DNA of 64,000 nt, taken from Protonemura montana. Taxonomy: Eukaryota > Arthropoda > Insecta > Plecoptera > Nemouridae. Under the pieces are notes generated by a model. The model worked only from the letters and a program-made list of their open reading frames with translations. It was not told where the DNA came from and did not search any database. Positions 661 through 30,310 of this stretch are shown here, piece after piece. The DNA is taken from the NCBI GenBank assembly GCA_947568835.1, contig OX387611.1, forward strand, positions 5,026,001-5,090,000, in the 5' to 3' direction. How positions within the stretch are numbered: the stretch's first letter is position 1; each line of letters opens with the position of its first letter. The translations under genes were made by a program, and so were the position numbers.

Positions 661-1840
661 GTAATAACAATGACTTCCGCCGGCCTCATCACCTCCAGTC
701 TAACAATGTCGACCTTGCTTCTGCTGATCGCGATCCACCCCGATTGGCAAGACGCCCTCTTCGCCGAGATGAGCGACATCTTCGGCGACGACATGTCCCG
801 TCCAGCAACGAACCTCGACCTCTCAAAGATGGCTGTCATGGACCGAGTGCTTCGAGAGACGCTGCGAATGTACCCGGCGGTCACTTTAGCACCTCGTGAG
901 ATCAAAGAGGATGTCGTATTGCCGAGTGGATACACGTTGCCAGCTGGGAGTTCAGCACTTGTTATTTTTAACCTTGTGCATCGGGATCCCAAGAATTACC
1001 CGGAACCAAACAGGTAAGTCCTCAGATGTGACGATGAGTGCGTTGAGTGGAGATCTGGACTAATTTTGTGGATGAAATATGGGATTTAGAATTTCTTTCA
1101 TGCAGTTCATGCTCGTACGAGTGGATCACTTTTGTCACAATTAAAGAGAGTAAATTCGCTCTAGGGTAATAATAATGGGGCTTCGCTGACTACACTAATT
1201 TACCGACAAGTAAATCATGAACTTGGATCTATAAAACTAAATTCGAAGGGAGTGAGATCTTTGAGGCAACGGTCATGAATACCAAAAAATGTAAAATTAG
1301 ATTATTTATTGATTACATGTTTAGTGCATACAATGTTTGCGGACACAGGATAGAAGTTATAGAAACTTGTGGACAAGTCGGGCAGAGATTTTGGTCGTCT
1401 CGTGGACTTTGTTTAGATAGTTATAATTGCAAATTTTTTGGCATCTCATGAATAAATGTAATAGATTGTCTTTATCTAGGTGTAATGAAAACAAGAAATG
1501 TCACAATTCAGAATGAGCGTATCAAAAGAGATAGAATAAAGCATAAGTTGAATTAATTATATCTTTGTAACACAGATTTCTGCCGGATCGTTGGCTACCT
1601 GACTCAGACATCAACAGGCACTCCTACGCGTTTCTTCCGTTCGGCGCCGGATTACGCCAATGCATCGGACAGAAGTACTCACTCTTGCAGATGAAGTCGA
1701 CAATAAGTCAGATGGTGCGACGGTACAAGATTGCCACTGACCTCACCATGCAGGACCTCGAGAAACTGGAAATAGGTCTACTTTCCAGATTGTGCTCAGG
1801 AGGATATCAGCTACAGCTGAAGAAAAGAGAGAGCGTTTAG
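661..1840 (+). CDS. CYP4-clan cytochrome P450, gene A (last two exons only; 5' part outside window)
   Basis: Two exons at 661-1013 and 1576-1840, bounded by AG acceptors (660, 1575) and a GT donor (1014). They have the same lengths (353 and 265 nt) and phases as exons 4 and 5 of the complete gene D. Exon 4 encodes the I helix (TSAGLITSS in place of the usual EGHDTTS), the K helix ExxR (RETLRMYP) and the start of the PERF region. Exon 5 encodes FLPDRW and the haem loop PFGAGLRQCIG with the cysteine thiolate ligand, ending in TAG. The family are haem monooxygenases anchored in the ER membrane that use NADPH-P450 reductase. The substrate cannot be told. No internal stop is seen, so the copy may be functional, but exons 1-3 lie upstream of the window. 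Its introns and 3' flank closely resemble those of gene D. Confidence 0.88.
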
Positions 1841-2075
1841 GGTGGGGTTCTTACCAGTAAAATTAAGGACAAAAGTGAAATGCTTTATTGTTTTAATTAT
1901 TTTGTGAGTACATGGAATTTTCGCATACAGCAGACAGGGTGGCGAGAGGTTTGCAAATTTCTGCAGATTAAGTCATAGTTTTGTTTGTTTTGGAGAATTA
2001 TTTAAGTCCAATGAAAACATTGTGGCAAGCATATTGACGAAGTTTTACAATTATTCCACAGCGTGTTACGTTTCG
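1841..2075. other. 3' flank of gene A, shared with gene D
   Basis: Sequence after the stop codon is closely similar to 30311-30535 downstream of gene D. It presumably holds the 3' UTR. No canonical AATAAA stands out. No other gene is seen. Confidence 0.5.
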
Positions 2076-2560
2076 TGTTAATTTTTTAATTTTGACTTGA
2101 CTACGTCTTAAAGCGCATTATATAGGGAGGCATGTATGGATTTGCTCTCCAAAATAGCCAATGTGTAACAAGCCCTACAGCCTACAGGAAGCTAAGTATA
2201 GAGTGCGACTTATTATCATTCAAAAGTTCAGATAATTCTCTAGAAGTACTTTTTTTTTTTTCGATAAAATAAATATTGGAGGCGTGAGAGGAGGCGGCGT
2301 TTTTAGCACTCGTCATTAGACTAATGGAAAAAAAAATATATATATCGCAAGATGACACTGCCATCCCAATCTGTAAAGTCCTTCAGCATGTAAATTAGAT
2401 ATGAAAACACAACCCAAATAAAGAGAGATGTAAAACTTGCATGTCAAGTATGGTCAGTACGGTAGTTGACCTACGTGCCTACGCGGTAGTTGAACGTAGT
2501 CACGCTTAAATCTCGGCCGTGTCAATAAGATACAGCTACACCCGTTTTTTCTCTAAAACT
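2076..2560. mobile_element. Unclassified ~450-bp MITE-like insert
   Basis: This block is absent from the equivalent place after gene D (near 30535) but recurs at 9339-11483, where it interrupts a PLE pseudo-LTR. It therefore behaves as a mobile unit. The ends carry related subterminal inverted motifs: GACTACGTC near the left end and GAACGTAGTCACGC near the right. No coding capacity is seen. Its internal GCCTACAG (about 2181) is the empty version of the hAT target at 9422. Confidence 0.5.
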
Positions 2561-2724
2561 TGTTTCTAAAATTGTTCTGATATTTGGACAACATCTAAGT
2601 AAACTAGTGGGCATTTAATCTAAGGTTCATCTCAGTTAGATTACTTATATATTGGTTTTTTTAATCCGACTATAAATCGTTGTTATTTTTGGGAAAGTAT
2701 TGTAAATAGTAAATGGAGGAAGTT

Positions 2725-2850
2725 AACTGGCATTTTATTATTATCAACACTATAACCGTGTCAAAAATTGATGCCCAAACGTGGACTCGAGTTCCCGTTT
2801 GGGCATCAATTTTTGAGACGGTTATAGTGTTGATAATAATAAAATACCCC
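2725..2850. repeat. Foldback of tRNA-like repeat (arms about 55 bp)
   Basis: The left arm starts at about 2729 (ATTTTATTATTATCAACACT) and its near-perfect reverse complement ends at about 2847. The centre holds a remnant CCCAAAC...GTTTGGG. The arms equal the 3' part of the tRNA-like repeat described at 35690-36130, so this is a head-to-head derivative that has lost the tRNA core. The shared tail with GCGCATTGCAAGCGTTTGCA follows. Confidence 0.65.
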
Positions 2851-2884
2851 GCGCATTGCAAGCGTTTGCAATTTAAATAAGATT

Positions 2885-3640
2885 TCATCCCAAGTTAGCT
2901 GGCGGTCAGCCAGGGTTTCATTGGTAGTATTGTAGTATTGTAAGCAATCTGTAGTATTGCAGTACCTTGCAGTGGGAAAAGCAAAAGGTGGAACATAAAC
3001 AAGGCCGTTGATCTCCAGCCTAGAAGACGATCGGCAACAAAGTCGTGATTGGAAAAATAATTTTTTTAAGGCTTCGAAAGCGTGGATCTCATAGGATTCT
3101 CAATAAATTTAATTGCAAGGACATCAGATGGTTGCAGATCTTTACATATGAGATTGTTACCAACTGTTGGCGTACAACTCTGCCAGAAGAATCTGATTGA
3201 GACAAAGAATCAAAATAATTAGGTTTAATTAATTAAAAAATTATTTAACATATACCGTGAAACGATAAGGCTGAACATGCGAACGCAAGTACGCATGTTA
3301 TGCTGTAATTTACTTAAATGCTCCAAATTGGTTGGAAGCAAAAAAAAAAAAAACAACGAAAAACGTTTTTTTCTGCTGATAAAATGTTTTTTATGCGACA
3401 ATTATAAAAATAATTAACATAAAAAACAACAAAGATTACTCTTTTAATGTCCAGATTGCTGAATTTGTCAAAATTAAACAAAAATAACAACACATCGTTG
3501 GCATAATTCAAATCGCAAAGTTGTGTACTGAGAAATATTATATTCTCCTGTATGCATGAAATATTTATTGCACGTTCGGTCTTTTGCCGAAAATTGACCT
3601 ATCCACGTTACTCGTTAACTTCAAACTATAAAGAAATGTA
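2885..3640. other. Intergenic, no gene seen
   Basis: AT-rich spacer upstream of pseudogene B. Short ORFs on the minus strand have low-complexity composition and no recognisable domain. Confidence 0.5.
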
Positions 3641-3676
3641 TAACTATCACGAAGGGCCGTCTTTCACGGGAAAATC

Positions 3677-3683
3677 TATAAAT
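3677..3683 (+). promoter_or_regulatory. TATA box of P450 copy B
   Basis: TATAAAT lies about 36 bases upstream of the ancestral ATG at 3719. It matches in position the TATA elements of genes C (11761) and D (21487). Confidence 0.45.
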
Positions 3684-4285
3684 GTCTAACGAAAGAGCCA
3701 ACGATTGCAGTTTTAGTCATGGATAGTTTTTTAACGGTACCGACTATCTTTATGATATTCTTTTTTTTTTGTGCATCTTCTACTGGCGTCCTCGTCTTAA
3801 GATTTGAGCCGCTGCCCGACTTATACCAGGCCCGAAACCGTTACCGCTAATCGGGAACGCAATGCTTTTTTGGAGCGACATACGAGATACTTTGCCTAAA
3901 CTTTTGAAACTTCAGAATGAGTTCGGTAACATTGGCCGAGCATGGATGGATAACCAGTTAATGGTGATACTATCCGATCCTAAAGATATTAAGTGTGTTT
4001 TAGGGAATCCCAGGGTAACTAATAGGGACTCTAACCTATCCCTGGCATTAACACCGTTTTTTGGCAACGGTTAACTTTCAAACGCCGACGACGTGTGGAA
4101 AGTTCACAGGAAGTTGATTACTCCAATGTTCCATTTTAAAGTGCTCGAGTCCTATTAAGAGATATTTGGGTCGAAGGCGAAGATATTGATGGACAAACTG
4201 GATGAAGTGGCGGACGGCTCGCCGTTTGATATCAATAAAAAGCTTTGTCTGTGTACTCTGGACGCTGTTTGCGAGACTGTTGTTG

Positions 4286-4640
4286 GTAAGTGATTTCAAT
4301 GACCGGCGATAGGCAGGTTCTGAGTTCGGATCCCGGTTTGGCTTTTAAACTCCCATAAACGCCTCAAGACGAATAAAAGCACTGACAAAAAATAGATATC
4401 CTTAGCGTATTCAGTGCTTAAATTTTAATTTATTTTTACCATAGATATTTAATAACAAAGATTATTTATTTATTTTGGAACTAATTGATTGATTTCAAAT
4501 TCAATTATTTTTGTCATGGCTTACCCGAAGCGGTCTAATTACTTGAATTTGTGATATGAGGTGATCATTATAGAATAATTGTCCTCAAAGTATTGAATTA
4601 CGTCTTTAGATATGATGAAAAGTTTATCTACCTGTTTTTT
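4286..4640. other. Decayed intron 1 sequence of P450 copy B
   Basis: It is similar to 31720-31990 behind exon fragment E, including the CCCGAAGCGGTCTAATTA segment. This shows that B and E come from one duplicated block. Confidence 0.55.
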
Positions 4641-4644
4641 TCCA

Positions 4645-4735
4645 GTGTGAAATTAGCTGATAGATGACCGGCCTTGACCGAAACGTCGAATTACAGGTGT
4701 CTTTAAAAAGGTCAAACACCTTCTTGCATCAAAAC
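4645..4735 (+). repeat. PLE-type repeat with CTGAT...CGAAACGTCG motif
   Basis: CTGATAGATGA, a GGCC-rich stem and CGAAACGTCG occur in the order of a hammerhead-ribozyme core, followed by a hairpin (GGTG...CACC). A paralogous copy lies at 17205-17320. The CTGAT box has extra bases relative to the hammerhead consensus, so activity is doubtful. Confidence 0.4.
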
Positions 4736-5043
4736 AAAATCGATTTACCATAAACACTCATTTCGATGATCAATACTTCGTATTTAACGAGCCAAATATT
4801 TTAAAACTGTTTTTATTTTACTGTTTATTTATTTATCTTTTATTTATTTGTCCTAAAAAGGAACTAAGATTTAGGCGAAGTTTCAACTTCACTGGCGTTG
4901 TCATCATCCGAACTGTATGCCGATACTTATCTCACCCACTCTGTCGCTTTCAAAGTATTTTTAACATTTTTTAAAAATCAGTTCACTCTGCCAGTGACAC
5001 AAACATAAACACAAATTGAAAAAAAAAACTATAAAAACATAAA

Positions 5044-5200
5044 CTAGAATCTTTTTATTATTATGAACATTATGACCATCTCAAAAATTGATGCCCAAAC
5101 GGGGACAAAACGGCATCAATTTTTGAGACGGTTGTAGTGTTCATAAGAATAAAATGCCCCGCGCATTGCAAGCGTTTGCAATTTAAATAAGATTTCATCT
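5044..5200. repeat. Second foldback of the tRNA-like repeat
   Basis: Arms meet at ATGCCCAAACGGGGACAAAACGGCAT and run outward through AATTTTTGAGACGGTT to the ATAATAAAAT ends. The tail with GCGCATTGCAAGCGTTTGCA follows. It lies in the degenerate intron of pseudogene B. Confidence 0.6.
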
Positions 5201-5739
5201 AATTAAAGTTAAACTCGAGTCAATTTTCTGGCAAACTAAAACTTCTAACGACACATTGAAGTTATGTCCATAGACTCGCAATCCTCGGAGAATTTGTCCT
5301 TGTGGCTTGCCAGTCTTAAAGATGTCGAGTATTCCGACTGAAACAGGTGGATTCCTCATCCGTCGTCCTTGAACACTTTTTGCAGGGGTTTTAAATTTAT
5401 ACGAATGCTACAATATTTTTCTTTTTTTTCCCCAGATTTCTGCCAGATCGTTGGCTACCTGGCTCAAACATCAACAGACACCCCTACGCGTTTCTCCCCT
5501 TCAGCGCTGGAGCCCGCCATTGCATCGGACAAAAGTACTCACTCTTTCAAATGAAGTCAACAATTAGCCACTTGGTGCGGCGATTCAAGATGACCACCGA
5601 CCTCACCATGCAGGACCTCGAGAAACTAGAAATGAGTTTTATTTTTCGACTGCGTTCAGGAGGCTACCAGTTGAAGCTTGAGAAAAAAGTGGTCGTTGAT
5701 GATGGGGTATATTCATCGGAGATTAATGCCCAGTGAAAT

Positions 5740-6200: not shown

Positions 6201-6204
6201 TTTT

Positions 6205-6430
6205 AGTTACGCACTCTTTTAGCAACGGGCTCTGTCGAAGAGCACCAAGGAGACCACCGGCTTAACTTCCCTTCCGAAGGACGGTACAACGTGAACAACA
6301 GGATTCCTCCACAAATCCATGCTGTCGAGAGGTTGATAAGCAAGGCTAGTGAAGTTGCTGTACTAACTTTCATCCCTCCAACCTCTCTCCCGAACAGAAC
6401 TGGTTATGTGTATGATGGTCATGTGTACCG
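6205..6430 (-). mobile_element. 5S-headed SINE, truncated
   Basis: Minus-strand copy of the SINE body: ACCACCGGCTTAAC, GGACGGTACAAC, then CATGCTGTCGAGAGGTTGAT, and the link region ending AACAGAACTGGTTATG. The 5S-derived head is truncated here. Confidence 0.65.
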
Positions 6431-11803: not shown

Positions 11804-14800
11804 ATGGATAGCTTTTCAGCGGTTCCGTTCATCATTCTGGTGTTCTCCTGTATTTGGTGTTTATTCTACTGGCGTCCTCGTCTTAAGATTTGGGCCGCCG
11901 CCCGACTTATTCCAGGCCCGAAACCGTTACCGCTGATCGGGAACGCAACGCTATTCTGGGGCCACATGCACGAAACACTTCCAAATCTTCGGAAACTTCA
12001 GGCCAATTTCGGTGCCATTGTCCGTGTGTGGATGGGTAATCAGTTAATGGTGTTAATTAACGATCCTGAAGATATTAAGTGTGTTTTAAGGACTCCCGGG
12101 GTAACTAACAGGGATCACAACTTAGCCCTGGCGCTAAAGCCGTTTTTTGGCAACGGTTTATTTTCAAACGCCGACGACGTGTGGAAAGTTCACAGAAAGT
12201 TGATTACTCCAATGTTCCATTTTAAAGTGCTCGAGTCCTATTTAGAGATATTTGGGTCGAAGGCGAAGATATTGATGGACAAACTGGATGAAGTGGCGGA
12301 CGGCTCGCCGTTTGACATCAACAAGAAGCTATGTCTGTGTACGCTGGACGCTGTTTGTGAGACGGTCCTTGGTAAGTGATTTCAATGACCGGCGATAGGC
12401 AGGTTTCGATAAGCCGTTCATCCAGTATGAGCTAGAATACAAAATCACTCTTTGGTTTTAAATGCTTAGTAAAAAGAATACTAATTTTCGAACTTATTCC
12501 TGATTCTTTATCAAGGGTGAAATCAATTGTCAATAGCATATTTGTTAATAAAACGTTAATTAATATTTGTTAATACCAAACGGCTTGATGTTCTCTTTCA
12601 TTTTTAATACAAGTTAACTGAGCCGATTATTAAAAAAAAAGTAGCAGATCCAAATGTCGATAATTAGAAAGTGTCATGTTCTATAATTTTAATCAGTCAA
12701 TCCTTTAATTTGGTAGAGAACCGAAATCTCCTCTAAAAAATATCTGTATTTGCGTTATTCGTGTATTGGGACCAGTTGAAGTGTTCTTTTGTCACACAGG
12801 CTTGGCAACGAGCACCCAAGAGGCAGGTTACAGTGAATTCCAGAAGGTGCATTACACTGCACTGCAGCTCATAAATCGGCGGGTCGTCTACCCCTGGCTG
12901 TTAATTCCCTGGTTGTACTCTCTCACGAGCGACGGCTGGAGAGCCAAGAAAGTCATCAAGGTACAAACTTAAGGTGGTTCATACTAGACTTGAGTGATTC
13001 GTGGTGTTTAAAGACACGTTTTTTTGACAACTAACCCTGCGACACTGGTCTTATGGCGTCCGTGAATGAAAGGTTGATGATGAGGATGATGATGAACATA
13101 ACCTAGCCTCAAAGGGAGGAGGTTCAATCAGGTGCCGGCACGAAGCCCACTCCTGTCGAAGGGCACCAAAGGGACCACCGGCTTAACGTCCCTTCCGAAG
13201 GACGGTACAACTCGAACAACAGGATTCCTTTACAAATCCATGCTGTCGAGAGGTTAATAAGCAAGGCGAGTAAAGTTGCTGTACAAAATTTCATCCCTCC
13301 AACCTCTCTCCCGAACAGAACTGGTCATGTGTATGATGGCCACCCATCCAATACCTGACTCAGCGCAGTGTTGCTTAACTTTCATCCCTCCAACCTCTCT
13401 CCCGAACAGAACTGGTCATGTGTATGATGGTCACCCATCCAATACCTGACTCAGCGCAGTGTTGCTTAGCTTCGGTGATCTCATGAGAACCGGTGTTTCC
13501 AACTCGCCAAATCGTTTGGTACGAAAACTTGAAATTTGAAATATGAGCAAATTTGTTTGCATTTTATTATTCTCACGTGTTGCTGAGTCTCCAAAAAAAT
13601 ACTCAAAAAATTATTTTACTGGAAATTTGTGGGAAACTCGGATTTTTTTTTTTTTTTTTTTTTTTGCTGTCGCCTTCGGTTTTTCAAGAAGTAATAGGGT
13701 TGAGTAATTTCGTAATTTTTTATTCCTTACAAGCACAATACTAATCTTGAGAGAGAAAAAAAACTTTTTCAGACATCTTCCTTATCTTCTTCCAATAACA
13801 TTAGTGTTTATAATTGTGTAAAAATGACTAAAAAACTCTGCCCGTGTCTCAACGCCGAAACCTCACCAGTAAAAACAACTGTAAAAGCGATAATTTGTAA
13901 TTATATTCCGTAAAGCACGACAATTTCAGAAATGTTAGTCTTATCTCGATCAGACAAATAGTTTCAATGAAATTACGTCCAGCGCTTGGACTCGCTGTCG
14001 GTAGCTACTCATTACCCCTCCTAACAGCGGAGTGGGGAGACCCATGAATCGCTCAGACGCGTTGTCAGTAGATCCTCCTAACAGTGGAGTGGGGAGACCC
14101 ATGAATCGCTCAGAAGCGATGTCAGTAGATCCTCCTAACAGCGGAGTGGGGAGACCCATGAATCGCTCAGACGCGCTGTCAGTAGATCCTCCGAACAGGA
14201 GAGTGGCGAGACCCATGAGTCGCTTAGACGCGCTGTCAGTAGATCCTCCTAACAGTGGAGTGGGGAGATCCATAAATCGCTTAGACGAGCTCCCAGTAGA
14301 TCCTCCTAACAGCATAGTGGGGAGACCCATGAATCGATTCGTCTTTCTCAACAAATACACTAAAATCCTCTAAAAAATGACATGTCCAATTAAACTCAAT
14401 TGGATGGAGCAACACCCGCTATAGGTGGAGATCGGTGTCCATGTCCTTTTTGGACATACATTTTTTAGAAGATACTAGGATTCCTAATAGCAAATACAGA
14501 CAACATTGAAACCTGAAAAATAACTGAAGATGTTCTTTTTGTAGAGCATCGATGCATTCAACAGCGACGTGATTTCTCGCAAGCTGGCAGCCTATCGACA
14601 GGGAAATCGACATGCAGGCATCGCGACAGCTTCCGGCAAGACCGTCACGTCGTTCCTGGAAATGATCATCGAGGCTTCCGAGACGCAGGGGTCCATCCTG
14701 ACCGAGAAGGAGATGCAGGATGAGGTGACGAACATTTTAAATATTGCTTTACTTATTGGCTCCAACGTATTTAGTTTATAGAAACGTAGGAAATAAATAC

Positions 14801-17800
14801 ACACTCTTACCAATGACGAATTTCTTATTGTTTATCGTTTATCCTGATATTTGATATTTGATATTTTTATTTCATCATACGATTGTGCATGGTATGGTTC
14901 GTGGTAAGAAAATATTAATAATAGTATAATATAATAATAACTATAATGGTAAATTCATTATAATTGTAGTAATATAAAAAAATATCATTATTATTATATT
15001 ACTATTATTTTTATTTTTTACTATTAATACTAGTTTTATGACTTTGGTTGGGAATAAACTATTTTTAGAAATTAAATATCTACATTTGGCAATACTTAGC
15101 CCTTTGGCTCTACGTTCAGGCTTTAAGGCATTCCATTCCCTTATGGTCCTGATGACTTGGGAGATTTTGTCCACGTCGCCTCTAGCTCCTCTCTCTCTTT
15201 TATGTTATTCTCTTTTCTTGAGGGGTCTAGTTTGGTCCTTCACTCTACCCATCCCGAGTGGCCGTTTACCGTCCGTTTGAGGTTGCAGAGTCTCGCCGTT
15301 TTTCTTCTGTTCTGTAGCGTTTCCCACCTTAGCATCTGTACAATTTCTGAGGGGCTTTCTCATACTTTGATTGGTTCCCCACCCAAGCCCTGCTCTGTCC
15401 TCCACTTTCTGTTTGTGCCAGTGACCCTCCGAGCAGCAATTTTCTGGTCTTTTTCTATGTAAGTGATGTCTTTTGCCTATGGGGGTCCCATATAGCACCT
15501 ACATATTCGATCATTGGTCGAATAAGGGTGAGGTAAGATTTTTCCTTTGTGGTCGTGGTGGCTCCTCTAATTGCCCTCGTCACGAAGTTTAGATTTCGTG
15601 TCGTTTTTCCTGTGTTTTTTTTTCGTGTTGTGTCCTCCCGTTCAAGGTGCTGTCTAGCCAGATTCCTGGGTATTTTTACTCCTTTACAGTTGTAAGTTAC
15701 TTTTCTTGGAGGTTGTATTTCTTATCTTCCCCATTATGTCTCCTGCTGAATCTCACTGTCTTGCATTTGTCCACGTTCAGCTCCATTTGCGAGTAGGTGA
15801 TCCATTTACATACTCTGTCTTAGTCCTGTTGCAGTGTTGACTCGTCTTCAGGATTTTTGATTTCTCTGTAAATTACACAATCATCCACAAAGAGGCGTTT
15901 ACTCCTCATGACCTTTTCTGTAATGTCGTTGATAAAGATTATGAATAGTAGGGGGCCGATTACACTACTTTGCGGTACGCCTGAGGTGACTGGGATTTCT
16001 ATCGACGTGTTCTCTTCCACTTTGACCACCATTGTTCAGTCCCACAGTATCTCTTGTATGATATTCATAAAAAAATCTGCTCTCTTTAGGTAACAACAAT
16101 TACTGCAGCCGGCCTCATTACCACCAGCATAACAATGTCGACCTTGCTCCTCCTGATCGCGATCCACCCCGAGTGGCAAGACGCCCTCTTCGCTGAGATG
16201 TGCGACGTCTTCGCCGACGACATGTCCCGTCCGGCAACACTCCAAGACTATCCCAAGATGCCTGTCTTGGACCGAGTGGTTCGAGAGACCCTGCGAATGT
16301 ATCCAGTAGTTGGTCTAATACCGCGTGAGATCACAGAGGATGTCGTGTTGCCGAGTGGATGCACGTTACCAGCTGGCTGTTCGGCAATTGTAATCAACTT
16401 CAACGTGCATAGAGATGCCAATAATTACCCAGAACCAAACAAGTAAGTTTTGACCTAGAGAAAACTATATGCAAAAATTTATGTATGAATTTTATTGATT
16501 ATTGACATGTTGAAATTCACCTCAAACTTTTGAATTTCATTACTACCATAATGTTCCAAAATAATCAATTTATTTCATTATCATCATAGCAAAAATACAC
16601 CAAATCACGCTTCGAACAGGCCTGCACAAGAGTGTACGGTGGGTGGTAATATGTTTCTTGATATATTTGTTACAAAATATTGAACCACCATGTTCATCAA
16701 ACAAATTGGTAGAGCGTGCCGTACCATTTTGAACAAGCTACCTGATATCTGTAAATCAAGTGACTAAATAAATAAATGGATTAACTGTGGTGTTGGCAAG
16801 GGAAAGGTGGAGCATTATGGTGCACAACTCTAAGCGTCCCATGCTTTATATGCAGTTCTTGAACAATTTAAGTAGCAAAAATGTTTCACGCAAAACGCTG
16901 ACGCTTTTTATACAATTTATAATTTTTTTTCCGAAAAATAAATAAGACTTCAGAAAATTGAATGTCCCTTTACATGAAGACTAACCGATTTTAACGATTT
17001 TGTGTAAAACAAACCTGTGCAGTGGTTCAAGTGCTCGATGAAATTAAATGCCAAACACTTTTGATAGTAATTTGTGAGCATGAGAAAGCCTAGAAGAGTT
17101 TCAAATTTTAACTAGAAAAACGTAAATATTTTGCACAGTGTAAAAATATATCTGCTATCGATCGTTTCCTAAGCCAGGAATGAATTGTGTGTACGCTTTA
17201 GCTGCTTTTCTCCGATGTAAAATCAGCTGATGGATGGCCGGACTTGACCAAAACGTCGAGTTAAAGGTGCCTTCAAAAAGTTCAAGCACCTTCTTGCATC
17301 AAAACACCCACTCTGTCACTTTCAAAGTATTTTTAACTTTTATTTTTAATAATAATTTCTCTCTGCCAGTGCCACAAACATAAACACAAACTGAAAAACA
17401 AACTATAAAAACATCAACTCGAGTCAATTTTCTGGCAAACTAAAACATCAAGCGACACATTGAAGTTATGTCCATAGACTCGCAATCCTCGGAGAATTTG
17501 TCCTTGTGGCTTGCCAGTCTTAAAGATGTCGAGTATTCCGACTGAAACAGGTGGATTCCTCGCCCGTCGTGAACTGGATACCTAGCAATCACACGTTTTG
17601 CAGACGTTTTAAATATTTACAAATACCACAGCAAATACTACAATATTTTTCTATTTTTCCCCCAGATTTCTGCCAGATCGTTGGCTACCTGGCTCAAACA
17701 TCAACAGACACCCCTACGCGTTTCTCCCCTTCAGCGCTGGAGCCCGTCATTGCATCGGACAAAAGTACTCACTCTTTCAAATGAAGTCAACAATTAGCCA

Positions 17801-17966
17801 CTTGGTGCGGCGATTCAAGATGACCACCGACCTCACCATGCAGGACCTCGAGAAACTGGAGATGACTTTTATTCTTCGACTGCGTTCAGGAGGCTACCAG
17901 TTGAAGCTTGAGAAAAGGGTGGGCGTTGATGATGGGGTATATTCATCGGAGATTAATGCCCAGTGA
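11804..17966 (+). CDS. CYP4-clan cytochrome P450, gene C (complete, five exons, 520 aa)
   Basis: Exons 11804-12371, 12800-12960, 14545-14724, 16090-16442 and 17666-17966 join in frame with GT-AG borders and give 520 residues. Seen: an N-terminal membrane anchor (about residues 5-25), the hinge [21 protein letters not shown] in the C-helix region, I helix [10 protein letters not shown]-helix RETLRMYP (Glu369, Arg372), FLPDRW, and haem loop [11 protein letters not shown] with Cys450. Odd: in the usual CYP4 EGHDTT motif the Glu that can form an ester to haem is Ala310, and the proton-relay Asp is Ile313, while Thr314 remains. The C terminus has about 12 more residues than gene D. The family are ER haem monooxygenases acting on fatty acids, hydrocarbons, hormones or xenobiotics. 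The substrate is unknown and the altered I helix makes classical monooxygenation uncertain. Introns contain a SINE, a minisatellite and a LINE. Confidence 0.93.
12440..12545 (-). repeat. Degraded PLE pseudo-LTR fragment in intron 1 of gene C
   Basis: GGTTTTAAATGCTTAGTAAA...CTTTATCAAGGGTGAAA matches, diverged, the minus-strand pseudo-LTR pattern at 6915-7000. Confidence 0.35.
13035..13518 (-). mobile_element. 5S-headed SINE with two 5S modules
   Basis: Full-length minus-strand copy in intron 2 of gene C. Read on the minus strand, it starts with the 5S-like GGTTCTCATGAGATCACCGA, then AGCTAAGCAAC and GGATGGGTGACC. A second module (13353-13443) follows, then the body CAACCTCTCGA and GTACCGTCCTTCGGAAG, and finally the tail at 13035-13110 with trinucleotide-like CATCATCCTCATCATC. 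Confidence 0.8.
13520..14015. other. Intron 2 of gene C, no gene seen
   Basis: AT-rich, with a poly-T run near 13645-13665. Confidence 0.4.
14020..14345. repeat. 57-bp minisatellite (about 5.7 units)
   Basis: The unit contains GATCCTCCTAACAG, GGAGTGGGGAGACCCATGAA and CGCTGTCAGTA. Because 57 is divisible by 3, it keeps open frames on both strands (19-residue repeats). These are not considered genes. It lies in intron 2 of gene C. Confidence 0.85.
14350..14480 (+). repeat. tRNA-like repeat copy (diverged)
   Basis: Flank ATACACTAAAATCCTCTAAA, then a degenerate tRNA-like core (AACTCAATTGGATGGAGCAA, GGTGGAGATCGGTGTCC), then the opposite flank TTTTTTAGAAGA. It lies just before exon 3 of gene C. 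Confidence 0.5.
14725..15130. other. Intron 3 of gene C, AT-rich
   Basis: Low-complexity AT tract (TAATAATAGTATAATATAATAATAA region). Nothing coding. Confidence 0.45.
15130..16060 (-). mobile_element. LINE fragment (reverse transcriptase 3' half) in intron 3 of gene C
   Basis: The minus strand at 15820-16032 encodes [20 protein letters not shown] and [15 protein letters not shown] blocks 4 and 5 of non-LTR retrotransposons (the usual ADD is VDD). Downstream on the minus strand (to about 15130) the thumb/C-terminal region continues with several stops, including a KYPGIWLDS-like segment and [10 protein letters not shown]. It is 5'-truncated and ends about 30 bases short of exon 4. The clade is uncertain (CR1/Jockey-like). 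Confidence 0.8.
16443..17200. other. Intron 4 of gene C, no gene seen
   Basis: AT-rich intron; only short unsupported ORFs. Confidence 0.5.
17205..17320 (+). repeat. PLE-type repeat with CTGATGGATGG...AAAACGTCG motif
   Basis: Paralogous to 4645-4735, with a downstream hairpin (GGTGCC...AGCACC). It lies in intron 4 of gene C. Confidence 0.4.
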
Positions 17967-21633: not shown

Positions 21634-24600
21634 ATGGCTAGTATTCTCACGTTAGTCATCCTCCTCCTGGCGTTCTTCTGTATTTGGTGCATTTTCTACT
21701 GGCATCCACGTCGCAAGATTTGGGCCGCCGCCCGTCTTATTCCAGGCCCGAAACCGTTACCGCTGATCGGGAACGCAACGATTTTCTGGGGCGACATACG
21801 CGATACTCTTCCGAAACTTCAAAAAATTCATGCCGATTTCGGTAACATTGCCCGTGTGTGGCTGGGTAATCAGTTAATGGTGATACTTAACGATCCTGAA
21901 GATATTCAGTGTGTTTTTGGGAATCCAAATATAATCAACAGGGATCACAACTTAGCCCTGGCGCTAAAGCCGTTTTTTGGCAACGGTTTACTTTCAAACG
22001 CTGACGACGTGTGGAAAGTTCACAGGAAGTTGATACAGCCTATGTTCCACTTTAAAGTTCTGGAGTCTTATGTCGAGATCTTCGGGGCAAAGGCGAAGAT
22101 CTTGATACAAAAACTGGACGAGATTGCGGATGGCTCGCCGTTTAATATCAACAAGATGATAAGTTTGTGCACACTGGACGCAATTTGCGATACTTTCGTT
22201 GGTAAGCGAACTTTATTTAGCGTTGGTAACTTGAAAACTAGCTTTAATGCCTTTCAAAACTCCAGGACTTGCTCTAGAAAGCCTATTATCATGGCATACA
22301 TAAAAAAATTCTTGAAAAATGACTAATTGGAAATATGATACCTTAAATTTATGATACAGTATTTTTAAAAGTGAAGTTTAATTACAAAAACTACGAGCCA
22401 CAGGTCCCCGATTTGAAACCTTTCATCATTGGTAAAAGGTAAATTCCAGGAGATTGCTACAGTTTAAAAAATATATATTCAAATCGGTGAAACGAATAGA
22501 AAGTTTATTTATTTGGTGTCCTTTCCACACAAAAGTGCCTTACCACCTGAAATTTTACGGATTTTGGTCAAAGGTGTCCAAATGATTTAAAATATACTGA
22601 TAGAGATGTAATTTCTTTTTTATCACACAGGCTTGACAACGAGTATGCAAAATACCGGGCATCTTGAATTTCAGGAGGCCCATTACTCCACATCCGAGTT
22701 AGTTTATCGCCGGGTAATCTACCCCTGGCTACTCTTACCCTGGCTGTACCCTCTCACTAGTGACGGCCGGAAAGCCAAGAAAATCATGAAGGTACCAACT
22801 TAAGATCAAAGAGAGAGTGATCTTAAGATCACTCAAATATATTTCCACACATAATTTGTTAGTTAGTAAAAAAAAAACCCAATTCGTTCGGGGTAATTTT
22901 TTTTCGAAAATACAAAATATATTGGTTTTTGAGTTTTTGGTTATTTTAGTTAGATGCATTTAGGATGCTTGAACCAGATAATTGTTTTAATTTTTTGAGG
23001 TTTTTTTATATCGGAAAATTGTCAGGACCGCTTTTACCCTTGACTTAGCAGGTACAAGTTACAAATTGTTGGGAAATGTAGTTAATAATTATAATAATTT
23101 TTATTTTTGCCAGATCGATTACATTATGTAATATTGGGCGAGTCTTATACATGAATCACATGAATACACATGATTGTCCAGACACTAGGACTTTATATAA
23201 ACAGATACATGAAAACATATTCATAAAAACATACAGAAAATATATCACAAAATTGTCTTACAGTGTGGATATATTGTAGAATTCCTTTAGGGAATACATG
23301 CAATGTTCCAACAAGAATTCTGTAAGTTTTACTGAAAAGTCTTGTTTGTATAATCTGGTTTTTAAGATGTTGGGTAGTTTATTAAAGATAACTATCCCAG
23401 CAGAGACAGGACTTTTAATGTCATTAGTTGATGCTGTTAGATTTATTTCTGCGTTACCTCTTAACAGGTAGTTATGGTTTCCCAAATATTTTATGACATC
23501 GTTATTATTGATGACGTACATTACGATATAGTAGATGTAAAGGCAAGGAAGTGGCATTATTTTAAATTTATGAAAAAACGGTTTACAAGAGTCTTTATAG
23601 TACATACCAGGGGTCGTAGGGTCAAAACTGGCATTGGCAAGGAATCTGATGGCTCTTTTTTGCAACCTGAATAATTTTTCGGCTAGTGGTACAATGCCGT
23701 ATTGTAACTTGGACTGTACGTACGCAAAGTAAACAGCTTTAGCTGAATGGAAGTCGCAAGTTTTCATTGTCCTGCTCACTAGGTAGCAACCTGAGGCAAC
23801 CGATAGTGCGGATTTATTAATATGGGCTTCCCATTTTAGCCTATGATCAATGATCAGACCGAGGAACCTCGTTTCATTGAGTACCTGAATACTTTTTCCC
23901 TCTAGGTATTATAGAGGGGAGGCGTTAGACTCCATGGTCTTGTGTTTTTGTTTGAAGTTGATTAGCACAGTTTTTCTGTTATTGAGCTTGAGCCCATTAG
24001 CTGAACTCCAGGTGACCATTTGGGATATGGCCTCTGTACAGGCCGAGTGAATGAGCGGAGTGTTCTCTGAGATGCGATGAGTGGTGTCGTCCGCATAAGT
24101 GGTCAGATTCCCACGATTGATTGACTTTTTTAAGTCATTGGTAAAAAGGATGAACAAGATAGGGGAGAGAGTAGCGCCCTGTGGGACTCCCATTGTTAGG
24201 GTAGCTTCCTCCGAGAAATGCGTGCCTGTTTTATTAGTAATTTTGACTGTTTGTTTACGTTTATATAGAAATGAACTTATCCAATCATTAGGAGTTCCGC
24301 GTATCCCATAACTTTTCAGTTTTCCTATGAGTAAGGTGTGCTCGATTTTTTCGAATGCCTTGATATAGTCATAAAAAATGCCATTGGCAGAATTACTCTC
24401 TTTCAAGGAAAGGAGTAGCTCATTGACAAAATTTGACACAGCTTTTATAGTTGACCTTTGTTTTCTGAAGCCGTGTTGACAGTTATCCAGTATATTGAAT
24501 TTGTTGAGGTGACTAAGCAAGCGATTACAGAAAGCATTCTCGAACAGTTTGGAGAAAACAGAGAGATTGGAGATCGGTCTGTAGTTGTTAAGTTTTTGTT

Positions 24601-27600
24601 TGTCGCCCTTTTTAGAAACGGGGATTACTATCGCTCGCTTCAGTTGTTCAGGAAAGATACCGGTCTCAAAAGACATGATTACAAGGAAAAGTAAGGGCAT
24701 CATCAAATGTACTGAAGCATGTTTAAGAACAAAAGCCGGGACTTCATCATAGCCAGCTGATTTTTTTCTTGTAATTTTCATGAGTATTTTTTTAATATTC
24801 TTTACCATTTAAGGGGCTTAGAAAGATGTTATGATAATTACTGCCAGTTGCAGAGGTGCTATTGTTATTGTTGGCGAACGGCTCGCTCTGTCTGATGTTT
24901 GGAACTGTTATAGTTGTGTCATTAAAGTGGTTGTTAAATATGTCAGCCACTTCTCTACCCGAGGTTATTAGGGATCCATTATGTTTTAGGTTACTGGGGG
25001 ACGTGTCAGCTTCTTTTTTAAATTTGTTGATAATTATCCAAGCTGGTTTCCTTTATTGGTGGATTTTCTAATGTTATTTATGTTGGCACGCTTTATTTCA
25101 TTAGCTATCTCGAGGTGATAAGCCTTTTTCATTTTTTTGTAAATGATATTGTCTTGTTCTTTCTTTGTAGATTTATAATTTAGATACATTTTCTTAACTT
25201 CCAGTGACATAGAGATAATATTAGGACTAAACTTCCGTTTTTTATTTGATTTATGGTGACTATGTTTGTGTTTATTATTATTTATTTTTTTGGAAAGGCT
25301 CTATCGAAGGACTTCATAAAAATTGAATGAAAGACGTTGAAAGCTTCATTCATATCAGCTTCTGCATATAGGGAGTCCGAATTAATCTCGCTTAATAGAA
25401 AGGCGAAATAATCTATTTGATTTTGTTTAAATGTGCGTTTGATGAGGTTAACGTTATCTTCCGATGCATGGTTGTTGTTACCGGTGATTGGAGGATTGGG
25501 GGTATCAATAAATACCAATTGATCCTTGTGATCTGACAGCCCTAATTCCACGTTTGCATCTAGATTAACGTACTTGTTATTCGTAATGACGTTGTCAATT
25601 GAGGAAGACGTAGTTTTCTGTTGCATTATTGCTACTCTTGTGGGTTCTTTATTGAGGAGCCTGCAGATTCCTAACAGTACCGCTTCTGAAAACATGTAGG
25701 ATAGTTTTTGATCGTTTATGTCTATATTAAAATCTCCACAGATCAAGAGGTTTTGTTGCCCTATGTGGTTCAACAGGTTTAGCAGACGTGACATAAAAGT
25801 CAGTATACAGGCTTTTGGGGGCTTGTAGCAAGTAACGATTATAATATTAAAAGGAGACTTCAACTCAATTGCGCATATTTCGAATTCAGATTCGATTGCC
25901 CTTAGATTGATGTCATTTCTGGGAGTGCAGACCAACTTCGAAACATTATTTACATAGATAGCGGTACCACCGTCCTTTTTAGTATTTCTACTGAAACATG
26001 ATACTAGTTTGTCACTATCGAAAGATGCTACTCTTTGAAGTTGTTCTTCACTTATGCTTAGCTCTTAAAAAATTAGCAATTTTCATGTAAAATGGGTAGT
26101 GGGCACGTAGGGTTGTTTTTCGTAACATTAGAAATTTGGTTGAAAACGGTTGAAAAGTTTTAATTTGTACGTCACTTGTGAGAATTACCCTAAACATGAC
26201 ATTTTTATAATAGCGACATGAAAATCAATGAAGTATTTTATGTATAAGTTGATGGCAAGGTAAGATATTTTCTAAGTGGCTTCAATTTATTTTAGTAATT
26301 TTAAAGTCTGTTGGCGTGTGTTCATGCTGCTTATTGAAAGAAAAATATTGACTAAATGCTATTCAATTTGTTTTTATATCATCAAAGTGCATTTTAGGAA
26401 ATGTTGACGGCCATTTTCAACCGCTATCTACATTTGTTTTCGAATTACTGCCAACCTTGGAATCCTAAAAGTGACCTTCTCTCAAAAAGGCTGGACATTT
26501 TTTCCAAAGGATTTTTTTTTTCGGAAAATGATAAGTTCTGTTAAAATAATATATAAATGTGTTGTTTGTACTCACAGATCATCGACAAGTTCAACAACGG
26601 TATCATTGCTCAAAAGGTCGCCTCCTACCGCGAGGGGGATCGTCGCCCAGGGATTGAGACGGGAACTGGCAAGATCATCACTTCCTTTCTAGACATGCTC
26701 ATCGAGGCCTCAAAGACACAGGGGTCCGTTCTTACTGAGCGAGAAATCTTGGACGAGGTGAGGCAATACCTGGACAGGAGCATTGCATCCAGCCAGCTTT
26801 TCTAGGGGTGCTTTCAGCTATCTTGGCTTACACTTAGTTTAAGCTTAAGTTTATTTATTCCCTTATTCAATGACATTTTGGAAACGTCAGGCAAGCACGT
26901 TTTAGATTTTTTTTTCTCCATCACACCTAATAGCGTGTTACCAAATGTTTAATTAATTAACAATGTCGTTCCGCCGGGTATCAACATTGACATCTCGAGA
27001 CCTGATCACTAACAGCATTTCAATATCCTCCTTGCTACTCCTGATCGCAAATTTCGGTTGAACGCTGCTTTTTACGAGATTATTACTGTTAATACTTTTT
27101 TATATCGTTTTTAATTTGGAAATTTTAATTTAAAAAACGGGCAAAAAATCTAAATTTTCACTATATTGGAAATTATAATTTTATAACAAGTAAGTAGGGG
27201 AGACTGGGGCAATTTGTTACAGGGGCAAGTTGTTACAGGGGCAAGTTGTTACAGGGGCAAGTTGTTACAGAGGCAAGTTGTTACAGGGGCTAGTTGTTAC
27301 AGGGGCAAGTTGTTACAATCCACTATAAAAATAGGGGATTTGAAAAATCGCGGTGTCATAAATATAAGTGTTAACTAATAGGTCGCTCGTCAGTCTGAAA
27401 CTGCAAAACTAGTCCGAAGCGCCAAAGTAAGGAAATTATTTGAGATAAAACGATTTTGACACCACGAGGCTAGATATAATTTTTTTCTTTTTTCCTTCCT
27501 AGCTGTTTTAGTTTAATGCAATCCCCAAATGAGTTGTGTTACCTGTTAGCCCCACATTTTCTCGTAATGCCAATAGTTATCTCCGGGCTGATAATCAAAT

Positions 27601-30310
27601 AGGTCGTGAAATAATAGCACTAATGTAATTGAAGTGCTACTGGGGCTAGTTGTTACTGTTCATTTCTTGTGTGGGTCTGGACATGATGTGAGGTTATGGG
27701 ACACTGCCTTTTCTATTTTACGCTGGATATATTTTTGGGTTTCATATTTCGTTTGTACAAAATATAATATGATTGTTTCCATTAGATGTCCAGGTTATAA
27801 AATGCGAATTTATAGGAGGAACATTGACATATTGACATAATATGAGATAAGAAGCGAAAAGAGACAACAAACGTCAACGAGAACTCTCCGCCGGAGGAGG
27901 AGGACGACGAAGACTTCGTTTGTTTTGTCTGTTCTCGACTCTTCTCCAAATCAGGCCCCGCTGAACTCGACAGGATTCAGTGCATTTAGTGTTTGGTTAA
28001 GCCGCATGTGAAGTGTATTGTATTCACACCAGAATATATCTGTGTAGATTGCACGTAAACGATTGATACAGTTGAATGTTTATTCAGTAAATATAACGTT
28101 TCACTTAAAAAATAAAACCTCAGATGCATTATCTATTGAACATTATTTATAATCAGCTCATTTTTGTTTTTTCCCCTATTAACTAGGTACTGTAACAACT
28201 AGCCCCTGACCTGTAACAACTTGCCCCGACAAGGGGCAAGTTGTTACACTTTGCAATCTGGCAAATTTTACGTTATCACGTGTCTATTAGGAAAATTATC
28301 ATTGTTATAAAAATTATTTCTATTAGTCAAAAGATGTGCGAATACATTGCCAAATTTAAAATTCATGAAAATTTTGTTAAATGTCCACAAAAAAATCAAA
28401 TGTCAAAATTGTAACAACTAGCCCCAGTCTCCCCTACCTATGTTCATTAAAGTAAAAAAAATCTTGTCCTTTTAGGTAACAACAATGACTGCCGCCGGCC
28501 TCATCACCTCCAGCATAACAATGTGTACCTTGCTCCTCCTGATCGCGATCCACCCCGAGTGGCAAGACGCCCTCTTCGCCGAGATGAGCGACATCTTCGG
28601 CGACGACACGTCCCGTCCAGCAACGCACCTGGACCTCTCCAAGATGCTTGTCATGGACCGAGTGATTCGAGAGACGCTGCGAATGTACCCGTCGATCACT
28701 TTGACACCTCGAGAGATCAAAGAAGATGTTGTTTTGCCCAGTGGATACAAGTTACCAGCTGGGAGTTCGGCGGTTGTTATTTTTAACCTTGTGCATCGGG
28801 ATCCCAAGAATTACCCGAAACCAAACAGGTAAGTTCTCAGATGTGACGATGAGTGCGTTGGGTGGTAAACCTGGGCTAATTTTGTGGATGAAATATGGGA
28901 TTTGGGATTTTTTTCAATTCAGTTATGATGCGAATTTAGCTCGAAAGAGTGGACAATTTTTTTTTATTATAATGAACAAGTCTCAAAAACTGATGCCCAA
29001 ACTTTTGTCACAATTAAAGAGAATAAATTCCCACACTAATTTACCGACTAACAGATCATGAACTTGGATTTATAAAACCAAATTTTGGTGGCGCTATTCG
29101 AAGGGAGGGTGATCTTTGAGGCAAAGGTCATGAATACCAGAAAGTGTAATATTTGATTATTTATTGATTAAATGTTCAGTCGTTGAGTGTGCAGGTTCTA
29201 GGTAGAGGCACAACTTTAATGTTATAGTTTCTGCGTGAAAGATGACCGCCAAATCACTACCCTAACGACAAAAATGCAGTTTACCGGAACATCACGGTAA
29301 GTGGAGCCACTGTCATATGAAATTTAATTTCGATATTTCTCGTAGGTTTACTAGCTTTTGAGACTTTTCGTGCTGAAAAGATTTCCATCAATGTTTACCT
29401 CAAAGATTGATATACACGAAACGAGATTCAAAAGCGAGTAACCTACGTGAAATATCGAAATTAAATTTCATACGACAGTGGCTCAACTTAACGGCGTGTT
29501 CCGGTACTCTACATTTTTGTCGGTAAGGTAGTCATTTGGCGGCCATCTTTAACACAGAAACTGTAACATTAACGTTCTGTCTCTACCCTAAACCTGCACA
29601 ATCAACGGTTTAACATTGACGTTCTGTCTCTACTTATAACCTGCAAAGTCAACGGTTTAACATTAACGTTCTGTCTCTACCTATAACCTGCACACTCAAC
29701 GGTTTAACATGACCGTTCTGCCTCTATCTATAACCTGCACACTCAACGGTTTAACATTACCGTTCTGCCTCTACCTAGAACCTGCAAACTCAACGGTTTA
29801 GTACATACATTGTTTGCGGACACAGGATAGAAGTTATAGAAACTTGTGGACGATTCGGGCAGAGTTTTTGGTCGTCTCCTGGACTTTATTTACAAAGTTA
29901 TAAAAGAAAAATTTATTACGAGTAAATGTAATACATTGTTTTCAAATAGGTAAAAGCAAAGCTATAAATGTCACAATTAAGAATGAGCGTATCAAAAGAG
30001 ATAGAATAAAGCATAAATTGAAACAATTATATTTGTGTAACACAGATTTCTGCCAGATCGTTGGCTACCTGACTCAGACATCAACAGGCACTCCTACGCG
30101 TTTCTTCCGTTCGGCGCCGGATTACGCCACTGCATTGGACAGAAGTACTCACTCTTGCAGATGAAGTCAATAATAAGTCAGATGGTGCGACGGTACAAGA
30201 TGACCACCGACCTCACCATGCAGGATCTCGAAAAACTGGAAATAAGTATATTTTCAAGGCTGTGCTCAGGAGGATATCAGTTAAAGCTGGAGAAAAGGGC
30301 CAGCGTTTAG
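21634..30310 (+). CDS. CYP4-clan cytochrome P450, gene D (complete, five exons, 508 aa)
   Basis: Exons 21634-22201, 22631-22791, 26578-26757, 28476-28828 and 30046-30310 join in frame (568/161/180/353/265 nt) to 508 residues. The start MASILTLVILLLAFFCIWC gives a hydrophobic anchor, followed by the hinge [12 protein letters not shown]. The I helix reads TAAGLITSS, the K helix RETLRMYP, then FLPDRW and the haem loop PFGAGLRHCIG with Cys450. As in A and C, the CYP4 haem-linking Glu and the Asp of the acid-alcohol pair are replaced by Ala and Ile. It is probably an ER-anchored haem enzyme with unknown substrate. Intron 2 (3.8 kb) holds an antisense LINE, intron 3 a pogo-like element, and intron 4 a foldback MITE. 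No frame damage is seen. Its 3' half is closest to gene A, while its 5' half resembles C. Confidence 0.93.
22202..22630. other. Intron 1 of gene D
   Basis: No recognisable repeat. The reading frame stays open for 42 codons past the donor, but the splice donor GTAAG and homology to gene C support splicing at 22201. Confidence 0.5.
22865..23090 (+). repeat. PLE pseudo-LTR, diverged
   Basis: Contains AAAATACAAAATATATTGG, TTTAGGATGCTTGAACCAGA, GGAAAATTGTCAGGACCGC and AGGTACAAGTTAC. It lies in intron 2 of gene D. Confidence 0.65.
23095..26100 (-). mobile_element. LINE (non-LTR retrotransposon) with endonuclease and RT, decayed, in intron 2 of gene D
   Basis: Minus-strand order: apurinic-type endonuclease at 25282-25935 (NLLICGDFNIDINDQ; ELGLSDHKDQLVFI), then RT at 23909-24808 (KSAGYDEVPAFVLK; NNYRPISNLSVFSKLFE; QHGFRKQRST; GVPQGATLSPILFILFTNDL; TTYADDTTHRI), then a C-terminal domain at 23258-23779. 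Stops and frame changes separate the three. The length of about 3 kb covers most of ORF2; an ORF1 gag-like part is not seen. It belongs to the Jockey/CR1-like group by motif style. Antisense to the host gene. Confidence 0.88.
26105..26570. other. Rest of intron 2 of gene D, no gene seen
   Basis: AT-rich, ending in the polypyrimidine tract and CTCACAG acceptor. Confidence 0.45.
26758..27194. other. Intron 3 of gene D, shared with gene A
   Basis: 26890-27194 corresponds to 330-620 upstream of exon 4 in gene A (CATCTCGAG, CTGATCGCAAATTTCGGTTG). This is direct evidence for block duplication. Confidence 0.6.
27195..28438. mobile_element. pogo/Tigger-like DNA transposon, internally deleted
   Basis: The ends are inverted: TAGGGGAGACTGGGGC on the left (27195 on) and GCCCCAGTCTCCCCTA on the right (about 28423-28438), flanked by TA. 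The homologous intron of gene A (615-625, ACAAGTACCTATG) lacks the element. Plus-strand 27870-28070 encodes a Cys-rich finger (EEEDDEDFVCFVCSRLF, IQCI, KCIVF, YICVDCT) of the CxxC...C...HxxC...CxxC kind found at the C terminus of insect pogo-like transposases. The catalytic DDE core is not seen. The left end has the terminal 16-bp motif repeated about seven times (27202-27315). Confidence 0.75.
27202..27315. repeat. 16-bp tandem repeat of the transposon end
   Basis: About seven units of GGGGCAAGTTGTTACA with a few substitutions. The same motif reappears inverted at 28193-28230 and 28412-28432. Confidence 0.85.
29181..29796. mobile_element. Foldback MITE with amplified right arm
   Basis: The left end CGTTGAGTGTGCAGGTTCTA is inverted at the right end (TAGAACCTGCAAACTCAACG). 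Long inverted arms (about 29200-29350 against 29430-29590, both with ATTTAATTTCGATATTT or its complement) meet in a 70-bp centre. After the right arm the terminal segment is repeated about five times with a 46-47 bp period (29555-29796). TTCAGT/TTTAGT flank the element, and gene A intron 4 (near 1320) has the uninterrupted sequence. It lies in intron 4 of gene D. Confidence 0.75.

What the first reader, a model, noticed from the sequence alone, without database searches (positions are those of the whole stretch)
661..30310. CYP4-clan P450s A, C and D have lost both acidic I-helix residues
Exon 4 of A (661), C (16090) and D (28476) reads AGLIT(T/S)S where CYP4 enzymes have EGHDTT(S). Alignment from the preceding DEV is gap-free: the CYP4 Glu that can form a covalent ester with haem becomes Ala, and the Asp of the acid-alcohol pair becomes Ile, while the Thr, ExxR and haem Cys are intact and the frames are undamaged. 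P450s lacking the acid are often not classical monooxygenases (isomerases, dehydratases, peroxide users). Retention of the same change in three copies suggests a selected, specialised subfamily.
Basis: partly seen in the sequence, partly recalled or inferred. Interest (0 to 1): 0.75.

Follow-up and report, generated by a model that had tools for sequence, protein, structure and literature searches.

The report
P450 array missing proton-relay acid
A small tandem cluster of arthropod cytochrome P450 genes shares one inherited change that replaces the acid normally used to pass protons to the haem with isoleucine; the proteins are still under selection, though looser than usual, and whether they have changed their chemistry is not known.

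Summary
The motif is real: A, C and D in the window read AGLIT(T/S)S, gap-free, in intact genes. Half of the claim is wrong. The alanine is not a loss: of 31 readable I-helices in fetched loci of this genome, 23 have Ala there and one (a true CYP4, EGHDTT) has Glu. The real change is loss of the acid of the acid-alcohol pair, from Glu, not Asp, to Ile. It is derived and has one origin. Five intact genes carry it (A, C, D and two upstream of the window); the other 26 readable I-helices keep Asp/Glu, including the closest paralogs (AGLETT). The Ile genes form one clade (99% bootstrap). Their dN/dS is 0.31, far below 1 but three times that of the acid-bearing paralogs; the terminal branches of A and C cannot be told from neutral. 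Exon 4 seems partly homogenised between copies, so copy number is weak evidence of selection. The array also holds at least three broken copies. Most likely this is a turning-over detoxification-type P450 array with a rewired or weakened proton relay. A switch to non-monooxygenase chemistry is possible but untested. New variant of a known kind; moderate interest.

The parts
661..1013 (+). Gene A exon 4 (I-helix AGLITSS, K-helix ETLR)
   Evidence: Gene model; Pfam p450 match by genome search
1576..1840 (+). Gene A exon 5 (haem loop FGAGLRQCIG) with stop; exons 1-3 lie upstream of the window (C14:5,023,550-5,025,761)
418..489 (+). Decayed copy of the first part of exon 4 in intron 3 of A (IHTLTSRALITNIISICSLLLLIA); also carries Ile
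   Evidence: tblastn E 0.027
3772..4287 (+). Pseudogene B, exon-1 remnant with three in-frame stops
5434..5736 (+). Pseudogene B, exon-5 remnant, 95% identical to C; no exons 2-4 found between by tblastn at E 1e-3
11804..12371 (+). Gene C exon 1 (membrane anchor, [17 protein letters not shown])
   Evidence: Pfam p450 E 4.8e-25
12800..12960 (+). Gene C exon 2
14545..14724 (+). Gene C exon 3, ends at DE|V
16090..16442 (+). Gene C exon 4 (AGLITTS; Ile313, Thr314)
   Evidence: Pfam p450 E 2.5e-28
17666..17966 (+). Gene C exon 5 (haem loop [10 protein letters not shown]) with stop
   Evidence: Pfam p450 E 1.8e-16
21634..22201 (+). Gene D exon 1
   Evidence: Pfam p450 E 1e-22 for the open frame
22631..22791 (+). 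Gene D exon 2
26578..26757 (+). Gene D exon 3
26978..27048 (+). Decayed copy of the first 71 bp of exon 4 in intron 3 of D (VSTLTSRDLITNSISISSLLLLIA); also carries Ile; of six exons compared it matches exon 4 of Y best
   Evidence: local DNA alignment; not returned by tblastn at E < 5
28476..28828 (+). Gene D exon 4 (AGLITSS)
   Evidence: Pfam p450 E 3.2e-28
30046..30310 (+). Gene D exon 5 (haem loop FGAGLRHCIG) with stop
31440..31721 (+). Fragment E, partial exon 1 of the same family, nothing further of the gene found downstream in the window

Best explanation
This is a tandem array of clan-4-like microsomal cytochrome P450 genes in an arthropod genome. Shown: the array descends from one ancestor in which the I-helix proton-relay acid Glu313 became Ile, together with Ala308 to Thr and, relative to the three nearest paralogs, Gly316 to Ser. 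Five full-length genes and at least three fragments remain. The haem ligand, ExxR, WxxxR and the oxygen-activating Thr are kept. As a clade the proteins evolve under purifying selection that is clearly relaxed, and exon 4 appears partly homogenised between copies. Inferred: the products are still haem-thiolate enzymes fed by P450 reductase. With no carboxylate at 313, the second proton needed for Compound I must come through water held by Thr314, Thr/Ser315 and the newly gained hydroxyls at 308 and 316. Such an enzyme would be a slow, poorly coupled or substrate-restricted oxygenase, as expected of a fast-turning-over detoxification-type array.
Against: No expression, protein or activity data. 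The compensating-hydroxyl idea rests on sequence position alone; no structure was modelled. A and C, two of the three intact genes in the window, have terminal branches compatible with neutrality. Silent sites between the acid-bearing paralogs are saturated, so their low omega may be underestimated. The I-helix clustering test was made after seeing the data, and the ten exon-4 tests were not corrected for number. Which acid-bearing paralog is sister differs between exons: P22 in exons 1, 4, 5 and 3-5, P25 in exons 2 and 2+3.
Confidence: 0.55

Rival explanations
1. The subfamily has left Compound-I monooxygenation. Without the proton relay it works from the ferric-peroxo state or from substrate hydroperoxides, as a lyase, isomerase, dehydratase or peroxygenase, with Thr314 only positioning the peroxide.
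For: In CYP17A1 E305G hydroxylation falls while C-C lyase chemistry is not significantly perturbed overall, with substrate-dependent shifts (PMC13312268). CYP74 enzymes use hydroperoxides and have an altered I-helix groove (PMC10813956). Ile is present in all five intact copies and in both exon-4 relics.
Against: Thr314, the Gly-x-x-Thr spacing and the other monooxygenase landmarks are kept. No CYP74-type insertion is seen in the haem loop. Relaxed selection and broken copies suggest detoxification-type turnover rather than a fixed essential reaction.
Confidence: 0.22
2. A decaying array: the acid was lost when function no longer mattered, and the copies persist through duplication and exchange while losing function one by one.
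For: At least three broken copies (X, B, E) beside five intact ones. Terminal omega of A (0.61) and C (0.65) is not distinguishable from 1. Selection is three-fold looser than in the paralogs. Exon 4 is partly homogenised. 81 of 502 sites invariant in the four acid-bearing genes vary among the Ile genes.
Against: Crown omega=1 is strongly rejected. Y (0.14) and Z (0.37) are clearly constrained on their own branches. Reading frames and catalytic motifs of all five are intact. The reverse count is larger: 104 sites invariant in the Ile genes vary among the acid-bearing ones.
Confidence: 0.18
3. The acid is supplied by an alternative exon 4 or the change is an assembly artefact, so the expressed enzymes are ordinary.
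For: A and D each carry a second, decayed exon-4-like stretch in intron 3, so exon-4 duplication has happened.
Against: Both relics also read L-I-T and match only the I-helix segment. No acid-bearing exon 4 was returned from the stretches holding A, C, D, Y and Z at tblastn E < 5, though that search also missed the D relic. Five separate genomic copies share Ile.
Confidence: 0.03

Closest known systems
Paralogs P22 (C14:9.33 Mb), P25 (C15:4.86 Mb), P26 (C5:6.12 Mb), P27 (C4:15.2 Mb) in the same genome
   Same: Same five-exon gene (P27 lacks intron 3), 49-69% amino-acid identity to the Ile genes on 502 columns, same landmarks, same Ala at 310
   Different: Acid-pair Glu313 kept (AGLETTG or AGLETTA), Ala308, Gly/Ala316; outside the array and under much tighter selection
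CYP4B1 (rabbit, PDB 5T6Q and E310A mutant 6C93)
   Same: Best solved-structure match (E 1.2e-46 for 6C93, 6e-46 for 5T6Q), gap-free through the I-helix, Thr314 aligned
   Different: CYP4B1 has EGHDTT: Glu310 ester to haem and Asp313; here Ala310 and Ile313
True CYP4 genes in the same genome (L065, C3:18.118 Mb, EGHDTT)
   Same: P450 motifs of the CYP4 kind
   Different: Keeps both acids; the search with C exon 4 meets this locus only as a 36% identical partial hit (query 30-85)
Natural acid-position variants: cnidarian CYP3336A1 (AGHHTS), CYP3336B2/B3 (AGSTSL); CYP51 His-Thr and CYP7A1/CYP8B1 Asn-Thr (these last recalled, from no call)
   Same: I-helix acid replaced in P450s that keep their other motifs
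   Different: Replaced by polar residues. In my count by eye of Tables 1-3 of PMC8110760, 3 of 83 motif rows lack the acid (His, Thr, Thr) and none has Ile; that paper set genes lacking a motif aside as fragments, so 3 of 83 is likely too low
CYP74 hydroperoxide enzymes
   Same: Non-canonical I-helix groove in a P450 fold (PMC10813956, passages seen)
   Different: Here Thr314 and the normal spacing are kept and there is no nine-residue haem-domain insertion

Membership tests
Cytochrome P450 superfamily (PF00067) | Profile match and haem-cysteine loop FxxGxRxCxG | tested here: met
   Pfam p450 above cut-off for five tested exon frames of C and D; haem loop in all five Ile genes
Cytochrome P450 superfamily (PF00067) | ExxR and WxxxR | tested here: met
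   ETLR and a WxxxR match in all five
CYP4 clan | Closest relationship to CYP4 among P450 clans | tested here: inconclusive
   CYP4B1 is the best solved match, 162 vs 134 bits for CYP3A7; no curated insect or crustacean CYP set was available for a clan tree
CYP4 enzymes with covalent haem | I-helix Glu310 (EGHDTT) | tested here: not met
   Ala310 in all five; Ala, Gly or Ser in 30 of 31 readable I-helices in the fetched loci
Classical monooxygenase P450s with an acid-alcohol pair | Asp/Glu at 313 | tested here: not met
   Ile in 5 of 5 intact genes of the array
Classical monooxygenase P450s with an acid-alcohol pair | Thr/Ser at 314 | tested here: met
   Thr314 in 5 of 5
Classical monooxygenase P450s with an acid-alcohol pair | O2/NADPH-dependent oxygenation | not testable with these tools
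   Needs protein
CYP74-type hydroperoxide enzymes | Nine-residue insertion in the haem domain and altered I-helix groove | tested here: not met
   Haem region of C collinear with CYP4B1 and the five with the paralogs P22, P25 and P26; Thr and spacing kept

The most novel reading that the evidence does not exclude
An arthropod P450 subfamily that abandoned acid-dependent Compound-I formation in a single Glu-to-Ile replacement with compensating I-helix hydroxyls, and now runs on ferric-peroxo or hydroperoxide chemistry. This would be a natural counterpart of the CYP17A1 E305G mutant, with an acid-bearing close relative (P22) still present on the same contig.
Probability: 0.18. Interest if true: 0.65.

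Novelty: new variant of a known kind. Interest (0 to 1): 0.36.

Why it matters
The acid of the acid-alcohol pair is one of the well-kept catalytic residues of P450s, and much of what is known of its role comes from laboratory mutants. A natural clade that lost it once, to a residue that can carry no proton, and stayed under selection with acid-bearing paralogs in the same genome gives a matched set for asking what a P450 does without it. It also shows that the CYP4 haem-ester Glu should not be assumed ancestral in every clan-4-like family.

Tried and rejected
Rejected: 'Glu-to-Ala loss' (the usual state here is Ala). Rejected: Asp-to-Ile (nearest paralogs have Glu). Rejected: transfer of an Ile exon into otherwise acid-type genes. 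Trees of exons 1, 2, 2+3, 4 and 5 put the Ile genes together, with uneven support; the exon-3 tree alone is unresolved. Looked for and not found, with limited sensitivity: an acid-bearing alternative exon 4.

Led nowhere: naming the species by assembly size in papers. A bacterial/archaeal relative scan gave one Chloroflexi locus, L066, in which the I-helix profile found nothing. Nine paper searches for acid-lacking or atypical P450s showed no title or abstract start about an Ile at this position; that is a limited search of an open-access library and no proof of absence. A DNA pattern for the AGLIT motif is too short to be specific (68 matches vs 66 in the reversed-pattern control); the five array copies are among them. 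Own errors: a tblastn option (script failed); wrong splice joins for P27, which spoil the tables and the P27 rows (mended; identities recomputed); a column-index slip in the printed labels (mended). The codon-model topology was fixed by hand from the exon 3-5 tree; the full-length tree orders P25, P26 and P27 otherwise, and with that order the results hold.
Full report
Setting. The window is bases 5,026,001-5,090,000 of contig C14 of a 258 Mb, 34-contig genome. Abundant (TTAGG)n repeats (15,571 overlapping pattern matches on both strands against 1 in the control) and a COX1 with TGA inside the frame, open under the invertebrate mitochondrial code, point to an arthropod; that TTAGG is the arthropod telomere unit is recalled. 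The species was not identified.

Observation. The exon-4 frames at 661, 16090 and 28476 read AGLIT(T/S)S as stated. I built full gene models with introns in phases 1, 0, 0 and 2. C is 11804-17966 (520 aa). D is 21634-30310 (508 aa) and A is 508 aa with its first three exons upstream of the window. All keep WxxxR, ETLR, Thr314 and the haem-cysteine loop. The alignment of C to rabbit CYP4B1 is gap-free through the I-helix. C numbering matches CYP4B1 numbering here: Ala310 stands where CYP4B1 has Glu310 (E310 in PMC9916508), followed by Ile313 and Thr314.

Two corrections. Upstream lie intact Y and Z, both AGLITTS, and a broken fragment X; in the window lie pseudogene B (three stops, no exons 2-4 found) and fragment E. 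Second, alanine at the CYP4 haem-ester position is not a loss. I collected every I-helix readable in the loci fetched, 33 distinct matches of which 2 did not reach the motif. Position 310 is Ala 23, Gly 6, Ser 1, Glu 1 of 31; position 313 is Glu 16, Asp 10, Ile 5. These loci are the best-ranked part of the genome's P450s (105 and 116 exon-level matches), not all of them. The single Glu310 read is a CYP4 reading EGHDTT (L065). A DNA pattern for EGxDTT gave 40 matches against 67 in its reversed control; four further ones with a His codon at x lie near P450 matches on C3 (two), C12 and C13 and may be more true CYP4s, but were not fetched. CYP4B1 orthologs themselves often have Ala or Gly there, and the E310A mutant keeps its overall rate but loses omega-selectivity (PMC9916508, passages seen). 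So the unusual change is at the acid of the acid-alcohol pair, from Glu to Ile.

Origin. Four paralogs elsewhere in the genome share the gene structure and read AGLETTG or AGLETTA (P22 C14:9.33 Mb, P25 C15, P26 C5, P27 C4). A tree of exons 3-5 rooted with more distant P450s of this genome puts the five Ile genes together (SH-aLRT 98.5, bootstrap 99), sister to P22 (bootstrap 86), with acid-bearing genes branching around them. Trees of exons 1, 2, 2+3, 4 and 5 also group the Ile genes (bootstrap 99, 84, 96, 91, 97; the first three rooted on P27 only); the exon-3 tree alone is unresolved. The sister differs: P22 in exons 1, 4 and 5, P25 in exons 2 and 2+3, with modest support. Glu to Ile is therefore one derived change. 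The codons are GAA/GAG against ATC/ATT. Seven sites are fixed for different residues between the five Ile genes and all four paralogs, of which A308T and E313I lie in the I-helix; G316S joins when the most distant paralog P27 is left out. Two of seven in a 12-residue core has binomial p=0.011, three of nine p=0.001; this test was chosen after seeing the data.

Independence of the copies. Four-fold silent divergence in exon 4 is much lower than in exons 1-3 for A-Z (9/50 vs 35/68, p=1.6e-4) and D-Z (9/51 vs 37/77, p=3.4e-4), and lower for C-Y, A-Y, C-Z, D-Y and Y-Z at p 0.001-0.014, uncorrected for ten tests. Three of ten Ile pairs show no significant reduction (A-C, C-D) or the reverse (A-D, 0.19 vs 0.04). 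None of the six pairs of acid-bearing paralogs shows a significant reduction (lowest p 0.065, P26-P27). Exon 4 has probably been homogenised among some members, so 'the same change in several copies' is weaker evidence for selection than it looks. A and D also each carry a decayed copy of the first part of exon 4 in intron 3; both relics still read L-I-T, and of six exons compared the D relic matches exon 4 of Y best. Ile therefore probably predates at least one round of exon-4 duplication, and no acid-bearing alternative exon was found.

What it probably does. In characterised P450s the I-helix acid feeds the proton that leads to Compound I. Mutating the pair cuts hydroxylation 10-15-fold in CYP17A1 (E305G, T306A) while the lyase step is not significantly affected overall, though E305G shifts it between substrates (PMC13312268, passages seen). 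In aromatase D309N 95% of activity is lost, with the rest attributed to alternative proton routes (PMC9366932, passages seen). By inference an Ile there should make an ordinary monooxygenase slow or uncoupled unless another relay exists. The kept Thr314 and the gained hydroxyls at 308 and 316 make a rewired water/alcohol relay my leading mechanism. Ferric-peroxo or hydroperoxide chemistry is the most interesting rival, and simple decay of a detoxification-type array the dullest. Sequence cannot separate them.

Comparison and novelty. I-helix variation is called 'not uncommon' in a survey of cnidarian P450s; counting by eye in its Tables 1-3, 3 of 83 rows with a motif lack the acid (His, Thr, Thr) and none has Ile (PMC8110760, section 7 read). 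That survey set genes lacking a motif aside as fragments, so the count is likely too low. CYP74 enzymes also depart from the monooxygenase I-helix (PMC10813956, passages seen) but differ in other defining features. I saw no report of an Ile here in nine paper-search listings. I file it as a new variant of a known kind with moderate interest.

Noticed in passing
window 23909-26064 (-): Non-LTR retrotransposon pieces (reverse transcriptase, Pfam RVT_1 E 1.7e-31, and endonuclease, Exo_endo_phos_2 E 1.6e-6) inside intron 2 of gene D, antisense to it; the adjoining open frame 23258-23908 has no Pfam match.
   Followed up: partly
window 27191-28440: A 1.25 kb stretch with 31-nt inverted ends (90% complementary) and many GGGGCAAGTTGTTACAG units, in intron 3 of gene D just downstream of the exon-4 relic; looks like a mobile element.
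   Followed up: partly
window 44019-45882, 52450-53673, 56964-57918, 58678-60430, 61190-62680: Long tandem arrays (units of 87, 68, 54 and 43 bases, 94-97% matches) that give repetitive open frames on both strands; the same 87-base unit occurs in two arrays about 7 kb apart.
   Followed up: partly
window 40208-40630: Exon of a cis-prenyltransferase-like gene (PF01255, E 2.2e-30) downstream of the array.
   Followed up: no
G000:C4:5,760,925-5,762,262 and 5,776,811-5,777,755: COX1-like stretches on a chromosome-sized contig, one with the same length, score and TGA count as the copy on the 15,885-base contig C34: probably a large recent nuclear mitochondrial insertion.
   Followed up: no
loci L034, L037, L038, L040 (C5:9.10-9.12 Mb): A second tandem P450 cluster with an odd I-helix, GG(A/T/I)ESCA: acid kept but Ser-Cys in place of Thr-Thr.
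   Followed up: no
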